A stretch of DNA of 64,000 bases from Halarcobacter bivalviorum (GTDB lineage: Bacteria; Campylobacterota; Campylobacteria; Campylobacterales; Arcobacteraceae), in contig NZ_CP031217.1 of assembly GCF_003346815.1 (NCBI RefSeq), positions 1,364,001 to 1,428,000 of the forward strand. The letters run 5' to 3'. The translations under genes and the position numbers were made by a program. Positions within the stretch are counted from its first letter, which is position 1, and every line of letters begins with the position of its first letter. Positions 48,671-62,188 of this stretch are shown here, piece by piece. The notes under the pieces are model-generated. The model had not been told where the DNA came from. It did not search any database and saw nothing but the letters and a program-made list of their open reading frames with translations.

Positions 48671-49033
48671 TTATGCAAAAATTTCTAAAATTTCTTTTGG
48701 AATTTTTGTAGGTTTATAATCTTTTAAATAAGCTAATTTTACTTTTGCAGTAAAAATAAGTTCTTCTCTTCTAAAGATTTCATGAAAGATTTCTAATGAA
48801 GCACTCTTTTTAGAAATCACTTTTGAAGTCACTTCTAATTCATCAGCAAAAGTTGCTGATTTAATATAATCTGCTTCTACTTTTTTTACTACAAAAAACT
48901 CATTATTATTATGCGGAGATAAACCTTTTTCAAAAAATATATTGCTTCTTGCTCTCTCACAAAACTTTAAATAGTTTGCATAGTAAACTACACCACCGAT
49001 ATCTGTATCTTCATAATACACTCTTATCTTCAC
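48671..49033 (-). CDS. ybgC: YbgC-type acyl-CoA thioesterase
   Basis: 120 residues of the hotdog fold. Opening MKIRVYYEDTDIGGVVYYANYLKFCERAR holds the catalytic Asp and the conserved YYANY. Cleaves short acyl-CoA or acts on ACP-linked chains near the Tol-Pal or lipid pathway. Start is GTG at 49033, seven bases after AGGGAG (49041-49046). The first 23 coding bases are duplicated twice in the island to the right, marking this 5' end as an integration target; its present promoter and ribosome site come from the inserted DNA. Confidence 0.9.
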   Translation of the reverse strand: MKIRVYYEDTDIGGVVYYANYLKFCERARSNIFFEKGLSPHNNNEFFVVKKVEADYIKSATFADELEVTSKVISKKSASLEIFHEIFRREELIFTAKVKLAYLKDYKPTKIPKEILEIFA

Positions 49034-49040
49034 TCTGTAT
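49011..49040. repeat. Attachment-site copy 1 (5' end of ybgC)
   Basis: Thirty bases covering the first eight ybgC codons and seven bases upstream. Copy 2 at 58681-58710 matches 29 of 30; copy 3 at 56480-56509 matches about 21 of the first 23. Each copy is followed on the right by integrase coding sequence or a remnant, as expected for att sites of tandem elements. Confidence 0.75.
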
Positions 49041-49074
49041 CTCCCTATTTATAGAACTTTTTAATTAACAAAAA

Positions 49075-50229
49075 TCAAATAATGCCCATAATCGTGCCTA
49101 TTTTATTTAATTTTGTAAACCTTGTATCATCATCTTCTTTTATATATTTTGCATAAATTTTTAATGTAATAGATAAGTCTTTATGACCTAACATTTTTGA
49201 TACCCAAAGGATATCTATACCATTTTGAATATTTGATATCATATAACTTGCAAAAGTATGCCTAAGATTATATATAGTTCTTTCTTTGATATTAATTTCT
49301 TTCAAAAGCTCTTTAAACCTAAGATTTAATATATCGTGAGAATAAAAAGGCTTTTTAAAATGAGATATAAATAAATTATCATATTGACCAGTTAAATTAT
49401 ATAAATCTTTTAATAAAGTTTCTGTTTGTGGTAGCATATCAATATATCTAACACTTGATTGTGTTTTAACATCCCCTACTTTACCTTGAACAGTAGTTTT
49501 TTCAACTGCTATTTTCTTCTTCTCAAAATCTATATCTTTCCAAGTTAAAGATATTAACTCCCCTGGTCTAATACCAGTTAAAAACATAAAAAGTATTACA
49601 TAATACAAATTACCTCTTGCATTAGATAATATTTCTTTAATTTCTTTTATTGAAAAAGGATTTACAGTATCACTCTCTTTTTCTACAAGTAGCTTAATTT
49701 TCTTTTTGATTACTAAAGGAGATTTAACCCTAGTTAGAGGATTAAATTTTATTAAATCATTTTGCAATGCTTTTTCAAAGATTGAGAAAAAGACAGAACG
49801 GTACTTATTAACAGATTGAGGTTTATACTTCTTTAATAGAGATAATTGCCATTGCTCTAATTCTATTGGTGTAATATCTTTTAAAATTTTATTACCAAAG
49901 AATGGTTTTATTTTATTCTCATAATTTGCTTTAGATCTTTTATATACATGATCTCTTACTGTTCCTCTATAAACATTAAAATATTCAACCGAAAAATCCT
50001 TAACTAATAAATCTTTTTCAAAGTATTTTATTTGAGAATTTCCAGTTAATGCAATTACTATTTCAGGAATTATTTTAGATTTTATATGCTTTAAATTCTT
50101 TTCATTAACTTTTAAATTAGTACTTCTTCTAATTCTTTTTTTATTAAAATAGAAATCTAACCACCAATAACTATTTATAGATCTTATAGTGATTTTTAAA
50201 TCACCATATAATACTTTTACAGAATTCAT
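49075..50229 (-). CDS. Tyrosine site-specific integrase
   Basis: 384 residues. N-terminal arm-binding region (1-75), core-binding domain (about 80-180), catalytic domain with Arg in TGIRPGELISLTW, Lys in KTQSSVRYID, YNLRHTFAS, LGHKD and the Tyr nucleophile in TLKIYAKYI. All catalytic residues are present. Probably inserts unit 1 at the ybgC 5' end, only about 40 bases away. Starts directly after the stop of the HTH gene, and a decayed relative of its C-terminus lies at 58736. Confidence 0.92.
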   Translation of the reverse strand: MNSVKVLYGDLKITIRSINSYWWLDFYFNKKRIRRSTNLKVNEKNLKHIKSKIIPEIVIALTGNSQIKYFEKDLLVKDFSVEYFNVYRGTVRDHVYKRSKANYENKIKPFFGNKILKDITPIELEQWQLSLLKKYKPQSVNKYRSVFFSIFEKALQNDLIKFNPLTRVKSPLVIKKKIKLLVEKESDTVNPFSIKEIKEILSNARGNLYYVILFMFLTGIRPGELISLTWKDIDFEKKKIAVEKTTVQGKVGDVKTQSSVRYIDMLPQTETLLKDLYNLTGQYDNLFISHFKKPFYSHDILNLRFKELLKEINIKERTIYNLRHTFASYMISNIQNGIDILWVSKMLGHKDLSITLKIYAKYIKEDDDTRFTKLNKIGTIMGII

Positions 50230-50562
50230 TTAAAGAATACCTTTCAATATTTTAGAAGAAGTTTCACTAAGAATAATTTTCTCTTCTTTCTGTTCTATAA
50301 TTTTAATCTTATGATTTGGATTCTTTTTAAATTCTAATATTGCTGATGGTATAAACTCTACTCTTTGATTTTCATTTATAAAATAATGTTTATTTTCAAT
50401 AAATGTTTCATTTTTAATATAGTTGTCTATTGTTTTCTCACTTTTGTTTAAAAACTTAGAAACAGCCTTTTTAGTATTCAAAGAAGTAATCGAAATTTGT
50501 AAAAGTTCAATCACATTAGATAACTGATTTTCTAAAACATCTAATTTTGCTTCAATTGTCAT
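50230..50562 (-). CDS. HTH/excisionase-like protein
   Basis: 110 residues from the ATG at 50562, six bases after GGAG; the upstream ATG at 50580 lies in the rep gene. N-terminal helix (coiled-coil-like), then KKAVSKFLNKSEKTIDNYIK, a MerR/excisionase-type helix-turn-helix followed by a wing region (FIENKHYFINENQRVEFIPSAIL). Placed between rep and int, overlapping signals of both; probably directs excision or regulates the element. Confidence 0.7.
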   Translation of the reverse strand: MTIEAKLDVLENQLSNVIELLQISITSLNTKKAVSKFLNKSEKTIDNYIKNETFIENKHYFINENQRVEFIPSAILEFKKNPNHKIKIIEQKEEKIILSETSSKILKGIL

Positions 50563-50563
50563 G

Positions 50564-51811
50564 TTACACTCCATATTCATTAAGTGAAATTAATTCATCA
50601 CACTTAATTTCATTAGTTTTATTATCAAAATATTTGAAATCTCTATAGATTAATTCATTATTCAATAAACCATAATAATTAGTATCCATAGTTTCATAAT
50701 CAAGGTTATTAATATCTTCTACTATTTGATGTGTAGTTCTTTGATTAATTGGGATAATTGGCTCAAATAGTTTTAATTTTCCATCAGGTAACTGTATATA
50801 TTGCTCTCCATCAATAAAAAGTAAAGGAGTTGTTTTTTTCTTTTCATATTTTAATTTAATAGTTTTATTTTCTTCTTCGACAGTTACTGTTTTTTTAGTA
50901 TATATTTCTCCATATGTATTACAAATAGAGACAACTTTTTTAGTGACAATATCCTCAAATACGGAAATCTCTCTATTTTTATACATATATGTTAATTCTA
51001 GTAAGCTATATTGTCCATTTAGCTTTCTATAAATTTCAAGACTTATAAGAGTTTTAGAAGTATAAAATCTAGTAATTCTATTATGGATATACCATAAAGA
51101 AAGGTCGGTTATATCATCAGGATTAGCTCTTAAATCATCAAATGTTTTTAAAATATATTTCATAAGATATGCAACTGGATTTTGAATATCTATTTGAAAA
51201 TCTGTTCTTTGATTTGGGTAATTGTCATTAAAGTACTTAGTAATCTTTTGGTGTGTAATTTCTAACTTATCAGCTGGTACAAATAAAGAAAAATGTAAAT
51301 GTGGTGTACCATCTTTATGTGGCTCATAAACTCTAAAATAGCACTTATCATCTTTTGATATATCAGTTTTTAGAAAATGAGAATCTAAAAGCTTTTTAAA
51401 TATCTTTGATAACTCTTTTTTTCCTCCATTTGGAGAATATTTTTTATAATCTAATTGGTCACACTTTCTACTATAAGGGCAATATGTAGTTTCAAATTCA
51501 TTTAAAAGATGTTTATTTCTATATTTAGGGTTTTTTCTATTATTACCAATTAATCTATGATACTCTGTTGGTAAAGTAATAGTTCCAAAAATTGGTTTTA
51601 AATTATGATTATCTGCATACTGTTTTAATGAGTAAACTCTTTGATTTACTTCTGCTATATATTTTGTAGTATTATGATAAGCATTTTTTATTACATCAGC
51701 CATTTTTATTACATCATTCCCTACTGTAAAGTAGTTCTTTTCAAAAAACTCTTTTTGTTTTTTAATTTTATTAAGAGCTATTTTTCTTGTTTCTTTTGTC
51801 ATACCATACAT
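50564..51811 (-). CDS. HUH-type rolling-circle replication initiator
   Basis: 415 residues. Rep motifs: KPIFGTITLP (motif 1, about 72-81), GTPHLHFSLFVP with the HxH metal site (motif 2, about 170-181), and VAYLMKYILKTFDDL with the nucleophilic Tyr (motif 3). Resembles phage or plasmid replication endonucleases. A Rep next to an integrase implies an element that replicates after excision. Start ATG 51811 follows AAGGGG by four bases. Confidence 0.8.
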   Translation of the reverse strand: MYGMTKETRKIALNKIKKQKEFFEKNYFTVGNDVIKMADVIKNAYHNTTKYIAEVNQRVYSLKQYADNHNLKPIFGTITLPTEYHRLIGNNRKNPKYRNKHLLNEFETTYCPYSRKCDQLDYKKYSPNGGKKELSKIFKKLLDSHFLKTDISKDDKCYFRVYEPHKDGTPHLHFSLFVPADKLEITHQKITKYFNDNYPNQRTDFQIDIQNPVAYLMKYILKTFDDLRANPDDITDLSLWYIHNRITRFYTSKTLISLEIYRKLNGQYSLLELTYMYKNREISVFEDIVTKKVVSICNTYGEIYTKKTVTVEEENKTIKLKYEKKKTTPLLFIDGEQYIQLPDGKLKLFEPIIPINQRTTHQIVEDINNLDYETMDTNYYGLLNNELIYRDFKYFDNKTNEIKCDELISLNEYGV

Positions 51812-51859
51812 AAGACCCCTTTTTTAGGTTATGCCGAAAGTTTTTAATAAATAGACAAG

Positions 51860-51893
51860 GAATATGAAAAATGCCTCCGCATTTTTCATATTC
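51860..51893. other. Perfect 15-base-arm hairpin upstream of rep
   Basis: Arms 51860-51874 and 51879-51893 with loop CTCC, about 50 bases upstream of the rep start. Could terminate the upstream small gene or be part of a rolling-circle origin or leading-strand/second-strand signal. Read to the right, TTTTCTATTT follows. Confidence 0.5.
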
Positions 51894-51936
51894 TTTTCTA
51901 TTTCTATGCTTCGCAATAAAAAATACATTAAGAAAT

Positions 51937-52140
51937 CTACTTCTTTGAAGAACTTATACATTCAAGGTTTTCTATATCTACATTAAATGTATTACTTAAA
52001 ACCATACAAATTAAATTATAATCTTTTAAATCAAGAGAACCAAAAGCATTAAGAGAGATTAAAAGCCGTACTAATTGGGCTAACTTCTCATTAATTTCAA
52101 TTTGAGTGTAGAGTTTAAAGTTATTATTTACTTTTTTCAT
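51937..52140 (-). CDS. Small element-encoded hypothetical protein
   Basis: 67 residues, starting MKKVNNNFKLYTQIEINEKL, mainly helical, one SLDLKDYNLICMVLSNTFNVD segment. No motif recognised. Codon use is like the element genes. Lies between the rep hairpin and the RHH control region. Moderate support as a real gene. Confidence 0.5.
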   Translation of the reverse strand: MKKVNNNFKLYTQIEINEKLAQLVRLLISLNAFGSLDLKDYNLICMVLSNTFNVDIENLECISSSKK

Positions 52141-52269
52141 TTCTTTTACCTTTTTATCTGTTTAAGGGGAAAATCTACTTTTAATCATAGATTCACTTTA
52201 ATTGCAACCCGCAACAACAATACTTAGGCTTAATTTTGCATACGCACTTACTCAAGAAATATCTGGTAT

Positions 52270-52285
52270 AAATAAGCCCTACTCT
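52270..52285. repeat. AAATAAGCCCTAYTCT repeat, copy 1
   Basis: Sixteen-base sequence found again with one change at 58638-58653, just left of att copy 2. GC-rich for this DNA. It could mark a replication nick site or an element end; function unknown. Confidence 0.4.
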
Positions 52286-52296
52286 GACCGTTGTTT

Positions 52297-52314
52297 ATTC
52301 TTTTAAAAAAGAAT
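52297..52314. other. Short inverted repeat
   Basis: ATTCTTTT (52297-52304) and AAAAGAAT (52307-52314) separated by AA, in the 300-base non-coding stretch 52141-52450 between two element genes. Confidence 0.35.
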
Positions 52315-52332
52315 CAAAACTTTTATGATAAA

Positions 52333-52405
52333 ATACAAACAAGGATTTGTTAATACAAATTTATTACATTTTTGTATTAACATTTAACTATTTTGTATAT
52401 ACAAA
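52333..52405. promoter_or_regulatory. Cluster of five ATACAAA half-sites
   Basis: ATACAAA at 52333, 52353 and 52399 and its complement TTTGTAT at 52371 and 52392. They form a perfect 12-base inverted repeat (52348-52359 / 52371-52382) and a 14-base palindrome (52392-52405). Lies 45-120 bases upstream of the RHH gene; a likely operator array for it, or iterons of an origin. Confidence 0.55.
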
Positions 52406-52450
52406 TTTTACAAGTAAATAATTTAATTATTACTTAATTATTGGAGATTT

Positions 52451-52732
52451 ATGTCTAAAAAAGTAAATAAAACTAAAAATATAATTATTAGAGTAACAGA
52501 AGACGAAGAAAAACTAATATCTAATTTAGCAGCACAATTAAATATTAGTAAATCTAAATTAATAAGAAATCTTGTTTTAGGAAATATTGATGATGTATTC
52601 AACTATGTAAATATGAGATATCTTCCAATTTTCAATGATTTACTTTTTATTGAAAATCCTTCACTTGAAGAAGAAGTAGAAAGATTAAAAAAGATAGAAA
52701 AACTTATTTATGATATTAGAGAAAAAAAGTAA
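52451..52732 (+). CDS. Ribbon-helix-helix regulator
   Basis: 93 residues. KNIIIRVTEDEEKLISNLAAQLNISKSKLIRNLVLG is an Arc/CopG-type RHH domain; the C-terminal half (NPSLEEEVERLKKIEKLIYDI) is helical. Only plus-strand gene in unit 1. Upstream ATACAAA array suggests autoregulation and control of element functions. Ends in a shared terminator with the subtilase gene. Start ATG 52451 after GGAG. Confidence 0.82.
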   Translation: MSKKVNKTKNIIIRVTEDEEKLISNLAAQLNISKSKLIRNLVLGNIDDVFNYVNMRYLPIFNDLLFIENPSLEEEVERLKKIEKLIYDIREKK

Positions 52733-52765
52733 AGAGTAATAGATTACTTTCTATTATTCTTTACT
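52726..52765. terminator. Bidirectional terminator RHH / subtilase
   Basis: Seventeen-base arms (52726-52742 and 52749-52765) with one mismatch and loop TTACTT between convergent genes. Confidence 0.65.
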
Positions 52766-52820
52766 TCATCTTTTGACTTTCCAATATTAACCCAATAAAA
52801 TGACACTTTCTCTCCACCTT

Positions 52821-55004
52821 TTATAAAGTAATTTTTGTTCCAATATTAATTTTAGGCTGAATTTGTTCTAAAATATTTGCATATTTAATTTGTACTGGAT
52901 TAAAAATATCAACTCCTTTTTCACTTTCAATAGTAAGAATTAAAGAAAAAGCTAATTCTCCTGTATCACTTGAATCAGAACCTTTTGCTCTTTCGTGATA
53001 CTTAATTTCAAAATATGGTTTATACAATCCACTTGCTTGCTTTCTTTTTTCAGAATGTAAAACTGTTTCCCATTTTTGTGAATCTCGTCTTAATTCTTGC
53101 TCTGATGTATACATTTCAGAACTACTAAAAAAAGAATCTGTCTTATTACTTTCAGATAAATCACCATTTTTTCGTTTTTGCTTTTTTTCAGAATGAGGTA
53201 TAAATGTTGCCACTAGTCCATGATTTGTATAACTAGGAGGATGTTCTGCATCTGTAGAGCTAGAAAAACAAAATGTAGCTTTAATTTTTAACATACCTTC
53301 AATATCAATATCAGGCAATGGAATTTCTGCACGATAATACTCTTTTACATTAATTTTTCCTTGATATAAAACTTTAATTTCATGATTATGACAAGTCATC
53401 ATATCATCAATATTCATATTAAATCTTCCCCATCCAATTTTTTCCTGAGAAGAATTTCCACTCTGTTCTGCATGATGAATTAAAATAGCTTTTAATGTTA
53501 TAGGTAACAAATTACTTCCATATTTTGCTTTAATGCCAATTGCTGTTCTTAATACATAGGGAGAAGCAAAACTCGTTCCTTGAGTTCCTATCAGATTATC
53601 ATATTCATTAAAAACGTAAAACATTTTATTATTTTTACTATCTCCTCCAAAAGCAATTCCATCAGGCTTAATAAATCCAGGAGAACGACCTGGTCCAATA
53701 TTACTATAAAAAGCTCTATCCCAAATATTACTATTACTATTTGCAGATCCTATAGCCATTGCATTAACACAATCTGATGGTACATGTACTCTTTCATTTG
53801 AATTACCTGCAGCAATACAAGTAAAATAATCACCCGTTGAAAAATGTTTATCTAAAACAGCCGTCCAATAATGAACATCGTCATCTTCAATAGTTTGATT
53901 TGGACCAATACTTAAATTAATAAATTCTATATCTTCATACCTCAATATTTTATCAATTCTTTTCAATATACTATACGATGAACAAGAATCTTCTAATATT
54001 TTATAATTCTTAATATTTGAATATGGTATTAATTCTTCTTCATCTTCTATATGTCCAAATAAACAAGCAGAAGTAACACCTATTCCATGATTTATATATT
54101 TATTGGATTTAGAGATAGTATGATCTTCATATTCAACAAATTGATTCATAAAACTATTCGAATTAAAACCTCCATCAAAAATTGCAACATTAAGACTATG
54201 ATCAATATAATCAGTATTTAATGTAAATTTATTATTTGAGGTAGTATCTGAGTCTGATCTTATAGAGATATTCCTAATTCTTTGTGCTATTCTAATAGCC
54301 CTTATAAATGTATAATCTGCAATATTCTTTATCTTTTCTTTATCAAGTTTTGCATGAATAAATGTTAATCCATCAACATTATCAGTAAACTCATTAATGA
54401 TTTTCGTATTAAGTATTTTTGTATATTTACTCAAATCTTTTAAAATATAACTATCTTCTGGATCATTAAAAGAATGCAATACAATTTCATATTCCTCATT
54501 ATCTAAAGGGTCTTCAAATTTAATTTTTTCATTATTATAAAAAGGTTTTATTTTCTCAATTGTCTGAATATCTGTCTTATGATTTTTTTGATTTAAATTA
54601 AAAATTTCATTTCTAAAGTTCTCTAAATTACCTCTTGATATTAGTATATAATATACATTTGTATCTTTTTTATCTTGATTTGGTAATTGTTTTTCTGGGT
54701 TTATTTCGCTATATTTACTTCCAACCACTTTTGCAGAATATTTTTTTAGAATATTAACAGGGAAATGAGATTTCGCTATATATGCAGGATGAACATAAAG
54801 AGAAAAAACAACTTTATTTTGAGGCATTGCCTCATTTGGAAGTTTATTTATATATTCAATTAATTGATCTAAATTTTTTTGAAGTCTTTCTGCAGATTCT
54901 TCAAAAGTATAAACTTCTTGTCTTTCCCCACCTGAATTTTTTTTTGGTTGAGCTTTTAATATTAATTTTTCTCCATTAATCAATATAAAATTATTCTTTT
55001 CCAT
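52821..55004 (-). CDS. ietS: S8 subtilisin-like protease, IetS-like
   Basis: 727 residues, no signal peptide, so cytosolic. A 260-residue N-terminal region unlike secreted subtilases, then the protease domain with Asp277 (VAIFDGGF), His306 (NHGIGV), Asn401 (AAGNSN) and Ser478 (GTSFASP): all catalytic residues present. A beta-rich C-terminal part (about 540-727). Immediately downstream of an AAA+ ATPase, 20 bases apart. This pair matches the IetAS anti-phage system from the literature. The cytosolic protease presumably cuts a host or phage protein once released by the ATPase; mechanism is inference. Confidence 0.8.
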   Translation of the reverse strand: MEKNNFILINGEKLILKAQPKKNSGGERQEVYTFEESAERLQKNLDQLIEYINKLPNEAMPQNKVVFSLYVHPAYIAKSHFPVNILKKYSAKVVGSKYSEINPEKQLPNQDKKDTNVYYILISRGNLENFRNEIFNLNQKNHKTDIQTIEKIKPFYNNEKIKFEDPLDNEEYEIVLHSFNDPEDSYILKDLSKYTKILNTKIINEFTDNVDGLTFIHAKLDKEKIKNIADYTFIRAIRIAQRIRNISIRSDSDTTSNNKFTLNTDYIDHSLNVAIFDGGFNSNSFMNQFVEYEDHTISKSNKYINHGIGVTSACLFGHIEDEEELIPYSNIKNYKILEDSCSSYSILKRIDKILRYEDIEFINLSIGPNQTIEDDDVHYWTAVLDKHFSTGDYFTCIAAGNSNERVHVPSDCVNAMAIGSANSNSNIWDRAFYSNIGPGRSPGFIKPDGIAFGGDSKNNKMFYVFNEYDNLIGTQGTSFASPYVLRTAIGIKAKYGSNLLPITLKAILIHHAEQSGNSSQEKIGWGRFNMNIDDMMTCHNHEIKVLYQGKINVKEYYRAEIPLPDIDIEGMLKIKATFCFSSSTDAEHPPSYTNHGLVATFIPHSEKKQKRKNGDLSESNKTDSFFSSSEMYTSEQELRRDSQKWETVLHSEKRKQASGLYKPYFEIKYHERAKGSDSSDTGELAFSLILTIESEKGVDIFNPVQIKYANILEQIQPKINIGTKITL

Positions 55005-55024
55005 AAATTAACCTTTAAATATTT

Positions 55025-56119
55025 TTAATTATTAAATCGTCTTATTGAATCCCTTGAGATTTCTAATAATTCACTTAATTTTCTTTGTGAAAGTAACTTT
55101 TTTTTATAAAAAAAATCTGCAATTATAATTCTTTCATTTCTATCAATAATTTTATTTCTTATTGACAAGTTTTCTAAAAGACATATATCAATATTCTTTT
55201 TATTTATTATCATATCTTTTAAGACTTTGTTTAGTTCTTTTTTTATCAAGCCATGTGACAAACCGATACAAGATTTATTAAAAGTATTTAAAACAAGTTC
55301 TGTTGCACTAATATTTTTTAGTTTCTGGCTTACAATTAATTCAATTTCTTTTATATCAGGTAAATCAAATTCAAGAACATGATCAAATCTTCTCCAAACT
55401 GCTCTATCCAGTAGTTCTGGATGGTTAGTTGCAGCAATTAAAATTGAAGTAGAAGGCCAATTATCTATTGATTGTAATAAAACTGTTACAAGTCTTTTTA
55501 ATTCACCTACTTCACTTTCATCAGATCTTTGTTTAGCAATGGCATCTAATTCATCAATTAAAAAAACACACTCTTTTTGCATAGTAAAATCAAAAACTTT
55601 TCTTATATTTTCACCTGTTTTACCTAAATAACTATTCATAATAGTTGATAAATCTAAAATATATAATGGCAAATTATTCTTTTTTGCAATTATTTTTGCA
55701 GTCATTGTTTTACCTACACCTGGTGCACCATGAAACAATATAGATTTTGTAGGCTCAAGTCCATACTCTAAAAGTTTTTCTTTTTGTTTATGTTCTTTAT
55801 ATGTATTTTCAATTAGTAAATCAACATTTTTTTGAAAAATAAATTCATTATTATCAAAATTTAAATCTTCTTCTTTTATTAAATTTAGATTCTCTCCAGA
55901 AACAGGTCTATCTATGTTTTCATTAACAGATCTTAGAAATGAACTATTTTCATATTTATTAATATAAGCATCTTTAATTTTTTTAGATAAACTTTTATCA
56001 GTTTGAGATAGATTTTTAATTAATTTATTAATATTAGTCTTTATATTTTTTTTATTATTTTTTAATAAATCAATAATAATTTCTATGGTTTCTTCACTAG
56101 TCAACAATTCTTCTTTCAT
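55025..56119 (-). CDS. ietA: AAA+ ATPase, IetA-like
   Basis: 364 residues from the ATG at 56119, eight bases after AAAAAAGG; an upstream start at 56185 lacks a site. Helical N-terminus (1-90), AAA+ core with Walker A GAPGVGKT (131-138), Walker B FLIDELDA (186-193), sensor/Arg-finger region WRRFDHVLEF, and a C-terminal helix-turn-helix-like tail (SQRKLSELLEISRDSIRRF). First gene of the ATPase-subtilase operon. The promoter lies near 56224-56256. Confidence 0.8.
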   Translation of the reverse strand: MKEELLTSEETIEIIIDLLKNNKKNIKTNINKLIKNLSQTDKSLSKKIKDAYINKYENSSFLRSVNENIDRPVSGENLNLIKEEDLNFDNNEFIFQKNVDLLIENTYKEHKQKEKLLEYGLEPTKSILFHGAPGVGKTMTAKIIAKKNNLPLYILDLSTIMNSYLGKTGENIRKVFDFTMQKECVFLIDELDAIAKQRSDESEVGELKRLVTVLLQSIDNWPSTSILIAATNHPELLDRAVWRRFDHVLEFDLPDIKEIELIVSQKLKNISATELVLNTFNKSCIGLSHGLIKKELNKVLKDMIINKKNIDICLLENLSIRNKIIDRNERIIIADFFYKKKLLSQRKLSELLEISRDSIRRFNN

Positions 56120-56223
56120 ATACTGCACCTTTTTTAAATTGATGCATTCTATACAAAATGGACTTATCCTTAAATTAATTATCAAAGAAGTCCACTTTTA
56201 ATATTTTTAATATTTATTGTGTA

Positions 56224-56256
56224 ATTATAATAAAAAGTTGTCACAGTTCGTGTCAC
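56224..56256 (-). promoter_or_regulatory. Promoter-operator of the ATPase-subtilase operon
   Basis: On the minus strand: GTGACA (56256-56251), six bases, GTGACA (56244-56239), nine bases, TATAAT (56229-56224), then the gene 105 bases on. The same arrangement precedes the TIR gene. Direct repeats with a 12-base period suggest binding of a regulator overlapping the -35 region. Confidence 0.6.
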
Positions 56257-56436
56257 AAATTAAAAAAATTTAGGATTTCATTTAATTTTATATTATTTAA
56301 ATATAAAAAATTAAAAAGTAATAATTAAAATCTTGATTAAAAGAAAATTTATTTTTAGTTCAAATAATGTCTAAAATCATGCCCAAAAAAATAAAATTAT
56401 CTTAAATTTAAAGAAAAAGTAATACAAATAAAGAAT

Positions 56437-56502
56437 TTAAAATATTGATATAGTGGAAAAGGTAAGAAATAAGGTATTATCATAATACACTCTAATTTTC
56501 AC
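56437..56502 (-). pseudogene. Displaced 5' fragment of a ybgC-type gene (att copy 3)
   Basis: GTG start, codons for MKIRVYYD, then a stop after 21 codons, preceded by AAGGGA. Matches the start of the intact ybgC-type gene with synonymous changes (aaa att for aag ata), so this end came from another strain's or element's copy. Confidence 0.6.
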
Positions 56503-56509
56503 GTTTGAA
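56480..56509. repeat. Attachment-site copy 3
   Basis: TCATAATACACTCT is shared exactly with copy 1 and the similarity runs on to about 56502. Junction between unit 1 and unit 2. Confidence 0.6.
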
Positions 56510-56514
56510 ATCCC

Positions 56515-56589
56515 TTATTTATGGGCATTGTGAGCCCTTATTTTATTAAATTTATTTAATGCTTGTGCCAAATATGTGCCATTTTTAGT
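56515..56589 (-). pseudogene. Possible integrase C-terminal tail remnant
   Basis: An open reading of about 24 codons ending at 56515, with GTYLAQALNKFNKI, resembling the FTKLNKIG tail of the intact integrase and lying at the same distance from an att copy. Low confidence. The rest of 56120-56671 is AT-rich and non-coding apart from the promoter, att copy and repeats listed. Confidence 0.35.
56564..56581. repeat. TGTGCCA-N4-TGTGCCA direct repeat, left copy
   Basis: TGTGCCA-AATA-TGTGCCA, period 11 bases. A copy with N4 = GATT is at 58567-58584 in the same orientation, on the other side of the hydrolase-propeller gene. Confidence 0.6.
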
Positions 56590-56671
56590 ATCTAGATAGT
56601 AGATACGGACTTTCACAATAATATATATTTTATCAAAGAGTTAGCTATAAAAAACTAAATTCTTAGTATAA

Positions 56672-58585
56672 TTAAAAAACTTGAAGTGCAAATTTATTAA
56701 TTGATGTTTTAATTCTATTGTTATGACCATAACTAATATTATATTCTGTGAATACATATAAGTCATTTTTTATTAACATAGTTTTCTTAGCACTACATTT
56801 GTTATTATTTGTAAATGAAAGGATTCCATTATTAAAATACTTTTCATTTAATATACCATCTTTTTTACAGTAAGCTACTAATGCATTTTGATAACTATTT
56901 CCATCATATTCATGTCCTGAAATTATAAAATCGTCATTCTCTAAAACCAAAATATCTACTGCTTCTGTTCTTTCATTTGCAATACAATCAAATATACCAT
57001 TATTACCAAAACCTAAGTCAATATTACCATCTTTTTTAATCTTTACAACTCTTGCTTCATTTTGAACACCCACTATAAATATATTATCTTTTGAATCAAA
57101 GGCAAGCTTTTCAACCCTCAAGAAACCTTTAATTATAACTTTTCCATTATTCCCAAAGTTTAAATCAATTTGACCATTATCAAAAAACTTATCAATATAT
57201 GCAGAATGATTGTTATCTCGACCTGCAACTATTATATAATTATCTTTTTGAATTATTGTATTCAACCAAACATTATCCATAAAATTATTGTTATTTAAAT
57301 TTTCTTCAAAAATAGTATCTATATTCCCATTACTTTTTATTTTAGTTAAATAAAGTTGTTCATTTTTAAAACTTTTACCAACAGTAAAAATATCATTATT
57401 TAAATTCATTATTGAATCCATAGCATATCTATGGTCAGCAAATTGCTCATCATAAAATTTAATACTAAAACTTGAATTAGATTTTTTTAATTTTAAAATA
57501 CAAATAGAAAAATATTTATTTATAACAATATGACCAATTATATAAATAAATTCATCATCAAATAAGATTTTTTTTAAATCAATATTTTCATATTCAGAAT
57601 ATTCAAAGATACCATTATTTGAAAATGAAGTATCTATTTCAAAGTTTTCATTCAATTTTAAAAGAACATTCCTAGTTTTATCGAATTTACTCAATAATAC
57701 ATAATTATCGTTATTTTGATGTTGTATATCTACTATTGAGTAACCTATTCCCTGAAACAAATTACTTTCTTTAAAGTTATTGGAAAAAGAAATGTCTTTT
57801 AAATTTAAAAAATCCTCAAGTAATAGATTAATATGTTGTATTAACTCTCCTAATTCATAATTATCTATTGGTTTTGCAATTTCAGTATGATTACATTCAA
57901 TAGAGGTAGGTCTTATATTGTGATGAATGGGATGAGAAGATTCTCTAGTCACATATTTATCAAAAATAGCACGATAATAGTGAGTATTAATTTTATTGAT
58001 TTTAACTTCATAATCAGTATCTAATTTAAGTAAAAAAGGTGAATCTTTTTTTAATGCAGTAATATGATTATTAAAAAATGACCCTATCTTTGCAAAATTA
58101 CCACCTCTATGTGGTGTGGCAAGTGTTATGTAAAAATTAAATTTATTTAAATGATTTAAATGATTTATTAATACTCCTTTAGCAATTAATCCACCCATAC
58201 TATGTCCAATAAAGCTAATTTTTTCATAATTAGGTATTTCTAATGATACTAATTCACTTAAATGATTAATTATAACTTCTAAATCTTCATTGTATTTTTT
58301 TACAAAATATTTATTGACTTTTGGTATCTTTGCTAATAATGTAGATATATATTTTTTTATATTTGCACTAGAAGGATATACAAAATATGCAATATCTGCT
58401 ACAGACTTTATTTTATTTGAAAAAAACTCACTAAAATACTCATCATTTTCATTTTTAAAGGTGTCTTTACTTCCGGTAAGTCCATGAATAAAAATTACCA
58501 AATGTCGGTTATTGTTATCTATAGTTTTTTCAAGTTTTATTTTAAATCCTTTAATATATAAAATCGTGTGCCAGATTTGTGCCAA
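56672..58585 (-). CDS. Alpha/beta-hydrolase fused to delta-60-repeat propeller-like region
   Basis: 637 residues, no signal peptide. Residues about 25-260 are a lipase/PGAP1-like hydrolase: FIHGLTGS (32-39), nucleophile GHSMGG (Ser129), LATPHRGG (155-162) and a late His in CNHTEIAKP (233), all consistent with activity. Residues about 265-637 hold repeats of the delta-60 type (FSNNGIF, NLNNDIFTVGKS, DLNFGNNGKVIIKG, DLGFGNNGIFD), probably a beta-propeller. The nominal start TTG at 58585 lies inside the flanking repeat and has no ribosome site; AAAGGA at codons 12-13 points to an unusual start near residue 16, or the true 5' end was replaced. Neighbouring defence genes suggest a lipid-attacking effector with a sensor domain, which is inference. 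Confidence 0.75.
   Translation of the reverse strand: MAQIWHTILYIKGFKIKLEKTIDNNNRHLVIFIHGLTGSKDTFKNENDEYFSEFFSNKIKSVADIAYFVYPSSANIKKYISTLLAKIPKVNKYFVKKYNEDLEVIINHLSELVSLEIPNYEKISFIGHSMGGLIAKGVLINHLNHLNKFNFYITLATPHRGGNFAKIGSFFNNHITALKKDSPFLLKLDTDYEVKINKINTHYYRAIFDKYVTRESSHPIHHNIRPTSIECNHTEIAKPIDNYELGELIQHINLLLEDFLNLKDISFSNNFKESNLFQGIGYSIVDIQHQNNDNYVLLSKFDKTRNVLLKLNENFEIDTSFSNNGIFEYSEYENIDLKKILFDDEFIYIIGHIVINKYFSICILKLKKSNSSFSIKFYDEQFADHRYAMDSIMNLNNDIFTVGKSFKNEQLYLTKIKSNGNIDTIFEENLNNNNFMDNVWLNTIIQKDNYIIVAGRDNNHSAYIDKFFDNGQIDLNFGNNGKVIIKGFLRVEKLAFDSKDNIFIVGVQNEARVVKIKKDGNIDLGFGNNGIFDCIANERTEAVDILVLENDDFIISGHEYDGNSYQNALVAYCKKDGILNEKYFNNGILSFTNNNKCSAKKTMLIKNDLYVFTEYNISYGHNNRIKTSINKFALQVF
58567..58584. 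repeat. TGTGCCA-N4-TGTGCCA direct repeat, right copy
   Basis: TGTGCCA-GATT-TGTGCCA; see left copy at 56564. Contains the nominal start of the hydrolase gene. Confidence 0.6.
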
Positions 58586-58637
58586 AAAATGTTCAAAAAT
58601 GCAACATTTTCATCAATTTTAGAAATTATAAAGCCTT

Positions 58638-58653
58638 AAATAAGCCCTATTCT
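58638..58653. repeat. AAATAAGCCCTAYTCT repeat, copy 2
   Basis: Differs in one base from 52270-52285; lies 28 bases left of att copy 2. Confidence 0.4.
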
Positions 58654-58703
58654 AAGGTATTCTTATGAAAGTAAGTAAAGTCATAATAAACTCTTATCTT
58701 CAC
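58647..58703 (-). pseudogene. Displaced 5' fragment of a ybgC-type gene (att copy 2)
   Basis: GTG start with AAAGG ribosome site at 58713-58717, codons for MKIRVYYD, stop after 18 codons. Nearly identical DNA to the intact ybgC-type start. Confidence 0.65.
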
Positions 58704-58710
58704 TCTGTAT
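58681..58710. repeat. Attachment-site copy 2
   Basis: 29 of 30 bases match 49011-49040 and similarity continues weakly into the integrase 3' flank (ATAGAACTT). Junction between units 2 and 3. Confidence 0.7.
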
Positions 58711-58735
58711 AACCTTTAAAATAGAACTTCTTATT

Positions 58736-58962
58736 TTATTTATTAAGAAAAGGGACAAAAAAGGGAACAATTTTTGATAAATTCTCTAACCTTTCCTCTT
58801 CATTTTCTTTTATAAATCTTGCATATACTTTTAATGTTATTGATATATCTTTATATCCTAACATTCTTGATACCCAAAGGATATTTTGACCTTTTGTAAT
58901 CATTGTACTTGCAAATGTATACCTAAGATTATATATAGTTCTTTCTTTAATATTAATTTCTT
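58736..58962 (-). pseudogene. Integrase C-terminal remnant
   Basis: About 75 codons open from near 58962 to the stop at 58736, reading like the last part of the intact integrase (INIKERTIYNLR, LWVSRMLG, ISITLKVYA). No start and no N-terminal two thirds. LRHTFAS reads LRYTFAS and LGHKD reads LGYKD, so both active-site His are Tyr; the Tyr nucleophile codon is kept. The tail SKIVPFFVPFLNK has diverged. The remaining non-coding stretch 58963-59084 shows nothing else. Confidence 0.8.
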
Positions 58963-59084
58963 ACAAAATCTATATATTCTCAACTTAAATATCAAGTTTC
59001 CTATTCTTTAATTCTAATCTAAACTATAAAAATCTTCTCATATAAAATTAAAATTACAAATAAATTTAGAGAACTAATATTTTA

Positions 59085-61544
59085 TTATTTATTTGATAAT
59101 TTATTTAATTTTTGTAAAATAAAATCTTTAGATTCATCTGGATATGATTTTAACTCTTTATTTACTAAAGCTATTGCTGATGATAAATCTCCTTCACTAG
59201 CAAGCAAGTAAGCTTTTTGTTTAATATACGTTCTTAATGAAATTGTTCCATTTAAATTAAATTCTTCTAAAGAAAAAATAGCTTCTTTCATTGATTTAAT
59301 ATCATTGAAAAAAGTAGCAATATCGAACTTTGTTAATAAAGGATAATGACTGTCTTTAAATGCATAAATAGCTTCATTAATCAAAAGTATTGATTTTTCA
59401 TGATTTTTTTCATAAATAGCAACACATAAAGCTTGTGCTCTTCTACCCATATCTGTTTGTATTTCTTCACTTTTCTCTTCTAGTTCTGTAGCTAATTGGT
59501 AAGCTATACTTTTATTATTTTGGTTTTTATCGCTATAAATTATACATGTGAAGTAAAGTAATATATGATATATATTATTTTTATTTTCAAGATAATTTTC
59601 TTTTGCATATGTTAATGCATTAGAATACCCTTCTGTTTGAATATAGATATGAACCATTTCTCTTTTTGCTCTTGCTTGTATATATTTTGAATTAACTATT
59701 CTATTTAATCTCTCAATAGCCAAATCATATTTTCCTATTATTCTATAATAATATCCTAAAATAAAATTATGTTGATCTCCATTTAATCTTTGTACTTCTG
59801 AAAGTACCCTTTTTTCTCTACTCTTAGCTAAAGCAAGACATAAATAGTATTTTATATCATTTACCAAATAATAATCAATAAAATCTTCTTTTTCAAGGAC
59901 TTTATCAGCTAATTCAATTACCCGTGTATAATTTCTATTATGATACAAATCTTTCATTGTTCTTAAAAAATGTGAAGGGAAAAGTAAAGTTTCATCAATT
60001 ATTTCTTCATTTAATATTGCTTCTTTTATTGAAAACAAGAAATCTGAAGAATCAAATTCATACTTATTATCTGATTTAATAAAATCAATTACATGTTCTT
60101 TAACTTTCTCTTTAAACTCTTCTTTAACTTCTAATTTATTTCTTATAATATAATCTCTGATAGAATCATTTAACCTTATAAACTGGCCATCATATCCAAA
60201 ATATTCACAAATATTTTCTGTTACTAATTGTTCTAAAATAGGCATAAATACTTTAGAATCAACAATATTAAATAAGAAATCTAAGCTAATAATTTCAAAT
60301 TGTGCTATTAATCTAATAAAAGACAATATAGGCTCATTCTCATTATAATGTTTAATTAGCATTGATGCTTTTTCATCATTAAATTCTCTAATTAAATGAA
60401 GATTATCTTTTACATTTTCAATATTTGTTCTAGCAATAAAATCTACAGTATATAATATTTGTTCTGGAAAACCCTGAAATTGATTACTTATTAAAATAAA
60501 GTCATCTATACTTAAATTTATTTCATATATTTCTAATAAGCGTTTAAATAATCTTTTTCTCTCAGATACAGATAAATCATCAACATGTATAGAAAAAAAT
60601 TCATCACTATTTAATTCAGAGAAATTAACTTTATATTTTGATGCAGTACATATAACAGTCTTATCTGAAAGATCTTCAGAAAGGATAATATCTTTAAACC
60701 ATTTTGATATTTTCCTTTCATAATTTATAATTGCACCATTATCAAGAACAATAACTATTTCATTGTTATCTTGTAATTCTTTTAAAACTGTTACTGCCAA
60801 TTGAACTTTATATTCTTGGCTCTTCATAAGTAAATTATGAAGTTTTGAATCAATATCTAAATAACCTAAATCATTAATTTTTAAAATAAAATCTTCAATA
60901 CTATCATTTATATCTAAATAAATAGTATAAGGTAAATAATATTGTTTACAAATATCAGTTTTCTCCATTGCAAATTTCAAAAAAGTTCTTCTACCTATCT
61001 GAGGAAAGCCTGAGGTAACTATACACTTAGGAGTTTTTTTAGAATAGTCATCTATTCTTTCTTCAAACTCATCAAGAATCTTGTTTCTACCAATACATAA
61101 ATTATTTTTCTTTTTTAATTTAGGATGTTTTTCTAATGAAATTTGCCTTAGCTTTTGTTCTATTCTTTTTGCTGAAATAGTTGGTTTTGAAACATATTTT
61201 AAATTATAATTTTGTTTTAGCCAATCGGGAATTCTTTTATCTTCAAATGTAATATTTTTATCTATAATTACAGGATAAAACTGGCTAATCCCTTTTCCTA
61301 ATCTTTTCTCTGCAACTAATAGTTCTTTTTTTACCCATTCAGAATTTAAAGATGAATCTGATATAAAAAAAACAAATAAATCAGTTTTTTTTAGACTATC
61401 CATAATTTCGTCTAATGTAAGGTTTCCCGCTTCAAATGTATATTCATCATAGTGAATACTTAACTTATTCTTTAACTTGTCTGCTACCAACCTAACATAA
61501 GAACTCTTATCCTTGCTAGAATGAGAAAGAAATGCTTTTATCAT
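59085..61544 (-). CDS. TIR-NTPase-TPR protein
   Basis: 819 residues. N-terminal TIR domain (1-135) with AFLSHSSKD and the catalytic Glu in SEWVKKEL (Glu74), as in NAD-degrading TIRs. Residues about 145-500 form a STAND-like NTPase whose P-loop reads GFPQIGRRT (179-187) with Arg for the usual Lys; the Walker B strand reads IVIVLDNG. Residues about 540-819 are TPR-type helical repeats (YYYRIIGKYDLAIERLNRIV). This design is typical of anti-phage sensors that deplete NAD on activation. Ribosome site AAAGG precedes ATG 61544. Shares a promoter-operator design with the ATPase-subtilase operon. Confidence 0.85.
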   Translation of the reverse strand: MIKAFLSHSSKDKSSYVRLVADKLKNKLSIHYDEYTFEAGNLTLDEIMDSLKKTDLFVFFISDSSLNSEWVKKELLVAEKRLGKGISQFYPVIIDKNITFEDKRIPDWLKQNYNLKYVSKPTISAKRIEQKLRQISLEKHPKLKKKNNLCIGRNKILDEFEERIDDYSKKTPKCIVTSGFPQIGRRTFLKFAMEKTDICKQYYLPYTIYLDINDSIEDFILKINDLGYLDIDSKLHNLLMKSQEYKVQLAVTVLKELQDNNEIVIVLDNGAIINYERKISKWFKDIILSEDLSDKTVICTASKYKVNFSELNSDEFFSIHVDDLSVSERKRLFKRLLEIYEINLSIDDFILISNQFQGFPEQILYTVDFIARTNIENVKDNLHLIREFNDEKASMLIKHYNENEPILSFIRLIAQFEIISLDFLFNIVDSKVFMPILEQLVTENICEYFGYDGQFIRLNDSIRDYIIRNKLEVKEEFKEKVKEHVIDFIKSDNKYEFDSSDFLFSIKEAILNEEIIDETLLFPSHFLRTMKDLYHNRNYTRVIELADKVLEKEDFIDYYLVNDIKYYLCLALAKSREKRVLSEVQRLNGDQHNFILGYYYRIIGKYDLAIERLNRIVNSKYIQARAKREMVHIYIQTEGYSNALTYAKENYLENKNNIYHILLYFTCIIYSDKNQNNKSIAYQLATELEEKSEEIQTDMGRRAQALCVAIYEKNHEKSILLINEAIYAFKDSHYPLLTKFDIATFFNDIKSMKEAIFSLEEFNLNGTISLRTYIKQKAYLLASEGDLSSAIALVNKELKSYPDESKDFILQKLNKLSNK

Positions 61545-61617
61545 TATATACCTTTAATTAAATTATTTAATTACAAAAATAATCATCTTCTTAACAATTA
61601 TAAAAAATTGTATCAAA

Positions 61618-61650
61618 ACTATATCAAAAATGTGTCACGACTGATGTCAC
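61618..61650 (-). promoter_or_regulatory. Promoter-operator of the TIR gene
   Basis: Minus strand: GTGACA (61650-61645), six bases, GTGACA (61638-61633), nine bases, TATAGT (61623-61618). Geometry identical to that upstream of the ATPase-subtilase operon at 56224-56256. Confidence 0.6.
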
Positions 61651-61792
61651 AGTTTTAAGTTTGACCAAAGTTAAAATATACTGTTTATGTATAATTTTTA
61701 TCATATGCTTAACTATACCACTCTTATATATTCAATATTTAAAATCAAAATATGTTAAAATTAGTTTTAAACTAATATATTTAAGGGGATTT

Positions 61793-62188
61793 GTGTCTAT
61801 TTTTGCTTTACAATCTTTAGCTGGTGGATTTCTAGATGAAGATTTAGAACATTTTAATAAATATTTTGATGATTGGTGTATTCAATTTGATAGTTATGAA
61901 GATGCTATGGATATAGTTCAAACGCTAGAAAATCAAGAATCTATTGATATTGTTGAAATAACACCATTAAGTTATCCAAAATACTTTTTTAATTCTCTTC
62001 AAGGAACTGTGTATGCAACAAGACAGATTGGAGATGAAATAATTTGTGTAGTAGAACCATTTATGGGTTCTAATTTTAGAATTGCAATTTGTGATCTTAA
62101 AACTAAAAATGTAAGATTAACTAAAACTCATTATAAAAATATTCCAAGTGTTGAAAGTGCCTTTGCAGGTTTTAGAGATAATATTTAA
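61793..62188 (+). CDS. Small unknown protein divergent from the TIR gene
   Basis: 131 residues from GTG at 61793, four bases after AAGGGG. The frame is open to a TTG at 61661 (175 residues, with a hydrophobic N-terminus), but that start lacks a ribosome site and lies by the operator. Acidic, with DEDLEHFNKYFDDWCIQF, a TVYATRQIGDEIICVVEP strand pair and TKTHYKNIPSVESAFAGF. No family recognised. Divergent from the TIR gene and could be its partner or a separate host gene. Confidence 0.6.
   Translation: MSIFALQSLAGGFLDEDLEHFNKYFDDWCIQFDSYEDAMDIVQTLENQESIDIVEITPLSYPKYFFNSLQGTVYATRQIGDEIICVVEPFMGSNFRIAICDLKTKNVRLTKTHYKNIPSVESAFAGFRDNI

What the first reader, a model, noticed from the sequence alone, without database searches (positions are those of the whole stretch)
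59085..61544. TIR-STAND-TPR protein with a non-standard P-loop
The P-loop has Arg in place of the usual Lys (GFPQIGRRT) and the Walker B strand lacks a second acid. The NTPase may bind but not hydrolyse nucleotide, so TPR-sensed signals may drive assembly directly.
Basis: partly seen in the sequence, partly recalled or inferred. Interest (0 to 1): 0.55.

Follow-up and report, generated by a model that had tools for sequence, protein, structure and literature searches.

The report
Bacterial TIR-NLR immune receptor with arginine P-loop
This gene is a member of a known bacterial anti-phage receptor family that resembles plant and animal immune receptors; its unusual arginine in the nucleotide-binding loop is not an oddity of this protein but a fixed feature of the relatives examined, which suggests a switch that binds a nucleotide but does not burn it.

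Summary
In detail: an intact 819-aa minus-strand ORF (59085-61544) has TIR, STAND-like and TPR parts, Arg185 where Walker A has Lys, and one Walker B acid (D268, then N269). The family is not new. The protein matches PADLOC's TIR-NLR model end to end (E 1.4e-233) and is 45% identical to PDB chain 9m0n, itself 98% identical to an E. coli protein in P4-like satellites, the setting in which Rousset et al. (2022) showed anti-phage activity of a TIR-NLR.

The useful point: the Arg is a family rule. All 74 family members whose P-loop could be read have it, with all six Arg codons and eleven phylum-level labels; six more distant STANDs keep Lys, as do two shorter TIR proteins left out of the family. 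Outside the TIR, only G152, G184, R185 and P360 are invariant (55 of 55), all in nucleotide-pocket motifs. The usual Mg-binding Ser/Thr is replaced in 49 of 55. The missing second Walker B acid is not a family trait (24 of 55 have one).

Best reading: a nucleotide-binding, hydrolysis-poor switch that clusters TIR NADases after TPR sensing. Binding, hydrolysis and assembly were not tested. The gene ends a roughly 12.7-kb mobile island that also carries IetAS.

The parts
59085..61544 (-). TIR-NLR gene, 819 aa: TIR - STAND-like domain - TPR-like helical repeats
   Evidence: PADLOC TIR-NLR E 1.4e-233 over 1-818; PDB 9m0n_A E 2.8e-217
61146..61544 (-). TIR domain (about residues 1-133)
   Evidence: Pfam TIR_2 E 4.3e-13; AbTir 7uxu Z 16.2 over 1-133
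61323..61325 (-). E74, candidate catalytic Glu, invariant 55 of 55
   Evidence: its role is taken from known TIR NADases (recalled)
60105..61127 (-). STAND-like domain (residues 140-480)
   Evidence: profile-profile match to canonical STAND/AAA_16 domains, E 5e-11; fold matches
60984..61010 (-). variant Walker A, G179-FPQI-G184-R185-R186-T187
   Evidence: R185 Arg in 61 of 61 aligned
60741..60743 (-). Walker B D268 (52 of 55 in family); next residue N269
60465..60473 (-). GxP motif G358-F-P360; P360 invariant 55 of 55
59088..59996 (-). C-terminal TPR-like repeats (about residues 517-819), proposed sensor
   Evidence: NprR/Rap TPR structures Z 19.0-20.1 over about 517-819; Pfam TPR_14 only E 0.063, below cut-off
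58735..58976 (-). approximate extent of a 3' remnant of a tyrosine integrase downstream of the TIR-NLR gene (72% identical to the intact integrase over 50 aa)
58681..58703 (-). relict attachment-like site: copy of the first 23 bases of the YbgC-like thioesterase gene; further copies at 49011-49033 and 56480-56502
   Evidence: 3 matches, 0.00 expected by chance (pattern taken from the copies themselves)
52821..56185 (-). neighbouring defence system IetAS (IetS 52821-55004, IetA 55025-56185), same island
   Evidence: PADLOC E 4.4e-48 and 1.2e-83
49034..61735 (.). approximate mobile island holding the above, between the thioesterase gene and the flanking 61661-62188 ORF
   Evidence: near-empty site in L149: the flanking homologies lie 60 bp apart against 12.7 kb here

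Best explanation
The gene encodes a single-protein anti-phage receptor of the known TIR-NLR family (Rousset et al. 2022), carried as cargo of a mobile island. Proposed working: TPR repeats hold the protein inactive and sense a phage component; the STAND domain keeps a nucleotide pocket (VGR, P-loop, GxP) in which an invariant Arg replaces the Walker A Lys and a basic residue usually replaces the Mg-binding Ser/Thr, so it binds an adenine nucleotide but hydrolyses it poorly or not at all; sensing lets subunits assemble, perhaps as a tetramer as in plant TIR-NLRs; clustered TIR domains cleave NAD+ and stop the infection by metabolic arrest. Shown here: architecture, family membership, invariance of the Arg and of the pocket motifs. 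Published for an E. coli TIR-NLR: anti-phage activity. Inferred: nucleotide binding, lack of hydrolysis, assembly, NADase, trigger.
For: End-to-end PADLOC TIR-NLR match and 45% identity to 9m0n_A. E. coli relatives (one has 805 of 821 positions identical to that chain) lie between a phage polarity suppression (psu) gene and an integrase beside tRNA-Leu, a P4-satellite setting; Rousset et al. report a TIR-STAND-TPR protein from P4-like satellites that protects E. coli (passages). E74 is invariant in 55 of 55 and R185 in 61 of 61; 2 further genome loci and 11 viral contigs agree. All six Arg codons are used, 22 of 55 one step from Lys. Six canonical relatives of the same phylum keep Lys, five of them aligned there. 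Best Foldseek match is the plant TIR-NLR RPP1 tetramer. In Avs5 (a SIR2-STAND), changing E410 of the single-acid Walker B to Gln keeps immunity, and its authors infer binding rather than hydrolysis (section read).
Against: No biochemistry was possible. In Avs5 the Walker A Lys is essential, so loss of Lys without loss of function needs the Arg to do its work. Arg can sometimes support slow hydrolysis (recalled). 24 of 55 relatives have an acid after D268. Two TIR-matching loci, L092 and L095, have a canonical GKT P-loop at about the same place; they are about 500 aa and match only to residue 203 (L092, through the P-loop) or 75 (L095), so I left them out of the family. Foldseek TM-scores by query are at most 0.36. 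What ligand 9m0n/9umd holds is unknown to me. That the protein cloned by Rousset et al. is the one I aligned is inferred from PADLOC's name, the domain order and the P4 setting, not from their sequence.
Confidence: 0.6

Rival explanations
1. R185 is a working substitute for Lys: the domain is an ordinary STAND ATPase that binds and slowly hydrolyses ATP, and the Arg is a frozen historical accident of the family.
For: R185 aligns exactly with Lys; D268 is kept in 52 of 55 and an acid follows it in 24 of 55; the pocket motifs are invariant.
Against: The Mg-ligand position next to it is S or T in only 6 of 55 and basic in 46. A frozen accident should revert now and then where one base change suffices (22 of 55 codons), and none of those examined did.
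Confidence: 0.22
2. The P-loop has a one-residue insertion: R185 is extra and R/K186 plus S/T187 are the true Lys and Ser/Thr, so the NTPase is near-canonical.
For: 186 is R or K in 46 of 55 and 187 is S or T in 44 of 55, so many members read G-R-K-S or G-R-R-T.
Against: Profile-profile alignment needs no gap and puts R185 on Lys; in the model strand 1 ends at 179 and the helix starts at 185, the usual spacing (recalled); 186 is S, T, E or Q in 9 of 55 while 185 never changes.
Confidence: 0.1
3. A dead STAND scaffold, as in iSTAND proteins: no nucleotide is bound and the domain only transmits TPR movement to the TIR.
For: Catalytic residues are altered; inactive STANDs, some with N-terminal TIR, are described (passages of PMC7159879).
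Against: BREX-type iSTANDs are described as having lost or eroded Walker motifs and evolving fast (passages of PMC12839542); here G184, R185, G152 and P360 are invariant, and none of 38 members matched Pfam iSTAND at E 0.01.
Confidence: 0.08

Closest known systems
TIR-NLR of E. coli P4-like satellites (Rousset et al. 2022, PMC9122126; PADLOC PDLC03015; PDB 9m0n, 9umd)
   Same: TIR-STAND-TPR over the full length, 45% identity to 9m0n_A, E74 and R185 shared, single gene on a mobile element
   Different: Host lineage and island differ; here it sits with IetAS at a thioesterase gene, not in a P4 satellite
Plant TIR-NLR RPP1 / WRR4A resistosomes
   Same: TIR plus STAND layout and fold (7crc_B Z 17.2 over 3-505; 9qlv_A Z 16.5 over 147-484)
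   Different: TPR-like instead of LRR sensor; plant NB-ARC has a Lys P-loop (recalled)
Avs5 (SIR2-STAND)
   Same: STAND sensor with an NAD-cleaving effector and a single-acid Walker B
   Different: SIR2 not TIR; canonical, essential Walker A Lys
iSTAND of MoxR-vWA systems and BREX
   Same: STAND fold judged unable to hydrolyse; some carry TIR
   Different: Walker motifs lost or eroded in the BREX type, strictly conserved in variant form here; no vWA gene and no MoxR-named match among the 14 neighbours scanned

Membership tests
TIR-NLR (Rousset 2022 / PADLOC PDLC03015) | full-length similarity to the family model | tested here: met
   E 1.4e-233, residues 1-818 to model 1-822 of 824
TIR-NLR (Rousset 2022 / PADLOC PDLC03015) | N-terminal TIR with the catalytic Glu | tested here: met
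   TIR_2 E 4.3e-13; E74 55 of 55
TIR-NLR (Rousset 2022 / PADLOC PDLC03015) | central STAND domain | tested here: met
   hhalign probability 97.1, E 5e-11 to canonical STANDs; fold matches
TIR-NLR (Rousset 2022 / PADLOC PDLC03015) | C-terminal TPRs | tested here: met
   helical repeats like NprR/Rap TPR, Z 19.0-20.1; Pfam TPR_14 below cut-off
TIR-NLR (Rousset 2022 / PADLOC PDLC03015) | anti-phage activity | not testable with these tools
   published for an E. coli TIR-NLR only (passages)
canonical STAND NTPase | Walker A GxxxxGK[ST] | tested here: not met
   GFPQIGRR; Arg in all 74 readable family members
canonical STAND NTPase | Walker B hhhhD[DE] | tested here: not met
   IVLDN in this protein; in the family the first acid is kept in 52 of 55, a second present in 24 of 55
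canonical STAND NTPase | GxP motif | tested here: met
   G358-F-P360; P360 55 of 55
iSTAND (Pfam PF19995) | match to the Pfam model | tested here: not met
   0 of 38 STAND domains at E 0.01 (five families listed); the laxer one search lists 25 families, a full list, and iSTAND is not among them
iSTAND (Pfam PF19995) | MoxR and vWA partner genes | tested here: not met
   no vWA and no MoxR-named match among 14 neighbours scanned; the one AAA+ neighbour is IetA

The most novel reading that the evidence does not exclude
TIR-NLRs form a clade of immune STAND receptors that gave up ATP hydrolysis by fixing an Arg P-loop that usually lacks the Mg ligand, so their switch is one-shot or driven by ligand and nucleotide binding (perhaps with a nucleotide other than Mg-ATP) rather than by an ATPase cycle, across about ten phyla.
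Probability: 0.4. Interest if true: 0.55.

Novelty: new member of a known kind. Interest (0 to 1): 0.36.

Why it matters
Whether NLR-type receptors need ATP hydrolysis, or only nucleotide binding, to fire is a long-standing question in plant and animal immunity. A whole bacterial family with a naturally fixed Arg P-loop is a clean natural experiment: one mutant series at R185 and R186 in the E. coli laboratory system would test it. The single gene itself is ordinary.

Tried and rejected
Considered and rejected: decay of an unused P-loop (invariance and six codons argue against it); a sequencing or frame error (intact ORF, and 73 other readable family members agree); a GR-type STAND shared with other effectors (tblastn of the E. 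coli STAND-TPR part found 3 plasmid records, the same Photobacterium, Phocaeicola and Zymomonas TIR proteins, and no phage record).

Led nowhere: single-sequence scans of genome contigs and viral contigs and tblastn of the phage collection found no relative. The PADLOC model over 397 genomes of the window's phylum matched in 13, but only the window's own is full length; the rest match within model positions 1-124, the TIR part (its one control hit, in Bacteroides ihuae, was not looked at). No paper in the held library names 9m0n or 9umd, and they did not appear among the Foldseek rows shown, so their title, ligand and state are unknown to me. Literature searches that might have shown an earlier report of the Arg P-loop gave none in their listings; I read only listings, passages and one section, so it may be in print elsewhere. 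Promoter and terminator scans were not above chance.

Rows dropped: six fragments under 700 aa (L052, L058, L060, L061, L074, L077), leaving 55 of 61 for column counts; the codon count instead uses the 55 loci L023-L077. Of the 80 loci (L078-L102) were not aligned; of these L080 and L083 carry the Arg P-loop, L092 and L095 carry GKT at about the same place, L089 and L098 show a GK[ST] pattern much further on (222 and 387), and the others show neither pattern behind the TIR. Of 14 viral loci, L119 is cut by a stop before the P-loop and L127, L128 are TIR-sized.

Full report
What is there. The ORF at 59085-61544 is on the minus strand, 819 aa, intact, and the only match in its 2.68-Mb genome. 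It has a TIR domain (Pfam E 4.3e-13), a middle domain that Pfam does not name in this protein but that matches canonical STAND domains by profile-profile comparison (hhalign probability 97.1, E 5e-11), and C-terminal helical repeats. The AlphaFold2 model from an alignment of 46 sequences has mean pLDDT 89.9, pTM 0.66. Foldseek's best match is the plant TIR-NLR RPP1 tetramer (7crc_B, E 7.3e-7, TM by query 0.36); VIA-align gives 7crc_B Z 17.2 (rmsd 7.0, 432 aligned) over 3-505, AbTir TIR Z 16.2 (2.2, 130) over 1-133, 2qen Z 18.3 (3.8, 296) over 145-468 and NprR Z 20.1 (4.9, 297) over 517-819.

It is a known family. PADLOC's TIR-NLR model matches residues 1-818 at E 1.4e-233. The PDB holds a full-length relative, 9m0n_A (also 9umd), E 2.8e-217 and 45% identity. 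An E. coli protein with 805 of 821 positions identical to it lies between a phage polarity suppression gene and an integrase at tRNA-Leu (likewise), and genes at least 99% identical to the PMV-1 copy occur in 26 of 5,426 complete E. coli genomes. In strain IMT5155 the annotation splits this gene in two. Rousset et al. 2022 report a TIR-STAND-TPR protein from the hotspot of P4-like satellites, protection including against P2-like phages, and propose ATP/GTP-dependent oligomerisation and NAD+ degradation (passages of PMC9122126). That their protein is the one aligned here is inferred from name, domain order and setting.

The Arg is the family rule. A scan whose patterns came from the TIR domain, and so could not select for the P-loop, gave 80 loci. 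I aligned 61 proteins: 55 of those loci plus six others (the window protein, four plasmid proteins, one E. coli protein). R185 is Arg in 61 of 61, and in 40 of 40 after thinning at 50% identity. Two more loci (L080, L083) and 11 of 14 viral contigs also carry it; the other three viral loci end before the P-loop. That makes 74 of 74 readable family members. The 55 longest span pairwise identities from 15% to 98%, and the tree labels them with eleven phylum-level names, ten if Melainabacteria is counted with Cyanobacteriota. In the 55 loci L023-L077 all six Arg codons are used: AGA 16, CGA 16, CGC 7, CGT 7, AGG 6, CGG 3; 22 are one step from Lys.

Contrary results. L092 and L095, two TIR proteins of about 500 aa from the same scan, have a GKT P-loop at about the same place, and the match of L092 runs through it (residues 5-203); I left them out of the family because nothing beyond that matches, but they show that a TIR-STAND with Lys exists. 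The first glycine, G179, is Asn in 3 of 55 and not Gly in the viral locus L124 either.

Control. With a profile of the STAND part alone, 12 of 397 genomes of the window's phylum match, only the window's own strongly. Of the 11 weak hits, six (L104, L106, L107, L108, L113, L114) show a P-loop to a pattern that accepts Lys or Arg, and all six have Lys; L109 and L111 match across that region but show neither; L105, L110 and L112 match elsewhere and were not read. Five of the six aligned as a profile have the Lys invariant, and hhalign puts R185 on it without a gap.

What this implies. Beyond residue 133 only G152, G184, R185 and P360 are invariant in 55 of 55. In STAND proteins these belong to the VGR lead-in, the P-loop and the GxP motif, which contact the nucleotide (recalled from NLR structures). 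So the strongest constraint in the roughly 680 residues behind the TIR is on the nucleotide site. Yet the Mg-ligand position (186) is S/T in 6 of 55, basic in 46 and E/Q in 3. I infer binding kept and hydrolysis lost or slow. Avs5 gives a partial precedent: changing E410 to Gln in its single-acid Walker B keeps immunity while changing K363 to Ala does not (section of PMC12931631).

Mechanism, with status. TPR sensing: inferred from architecture. Switch through a nucleotide-bound, non-hydrolysing STAND: inferred, about 0.6. Assembly, perhaps a tetramer: by analogy with plant TIR-NLRs. NAD+ cleavage by E74: inferred from invariance and TIR relatives. Anti-phage outcome: published for an E. coli TIR-NLR only.

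Context. The island runs from the start of a YbgC-like thioesterase gene (49033) to about 61735. In relative G407 (L149) the two flanking homologies lie 60 bp apart, against 12.7 kb here. The first 23 bases of the thioesterase gene recur at 56480-56502 (2 mismatches) and 58681-58703 (0.00 expected), next to an intact integrase (49075-50229) and an integrase remnant (about 58735-58976): elements appear stacked at one attachment site. No fourth copy was found in the window at up to 3 mismatches. Cargo: IetAS, a DUF676-type hydrolase with a sub-threshold beta-propeller match, and TIR-NLR at the far end. Relative G403 (L152) holds at the same site an integrase 77% identical to the one here, with Rep and Zot proteins as in filamentous phages (the phage type is my reading).

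Verdict. Real observation, known family; the fixed Arg P-loop is the part worth a specialist's look.

Noticed in passing
49011-49033, 56480-56502, 58681-58703 (minus strand): Three copies of the first 23 bases of a YbgC-like thioesterase gene mark stacked integrations at one site (0.00 expected by chance). In the four relatives with both flanks matched (L149-L152) the gap between them runs from 60 bp to about 14 kb; three others (L153-L155) lack a match to the near right flank.
   Followed up: partly
52821-56185: IetAS defence pair (AAA+ ATPase and subtilisin-like protease) in the same island.
   Followed up: partly
56672-58585: Fusion of a DUF676-type serine hydrolase with a C-terminal part weakly like DUF5122 beta-propeller repeats; sits alone between two attachment-like sites, a possible unrecognised cargo or defence gene.
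   Followed up: no
L152:3296-15822: At the same site in a relative: PAPS-reductase-like gene with two neighbours unnamed by Pfam, plus Rep, Zot and a 77% identical integrase, suggesting filamentous-phage-type elements use this hotspot.
   Followed up: partly
L021:3124-5597: In E. coli IMT5155 the TIR-NLR gene is annotated as two pieces, and viral contig L119 is stopped at about 180 aa: broken alleles occur.
   Followed up: no
L092:6001-7464, L095:3890-5356: TIR proteins of about 500 aa with a canonical GKT P-loop, each with a nearby frame holding a VGR...GKT NTPase motif: a different TIR-NTPase kind.
   Followed up: no
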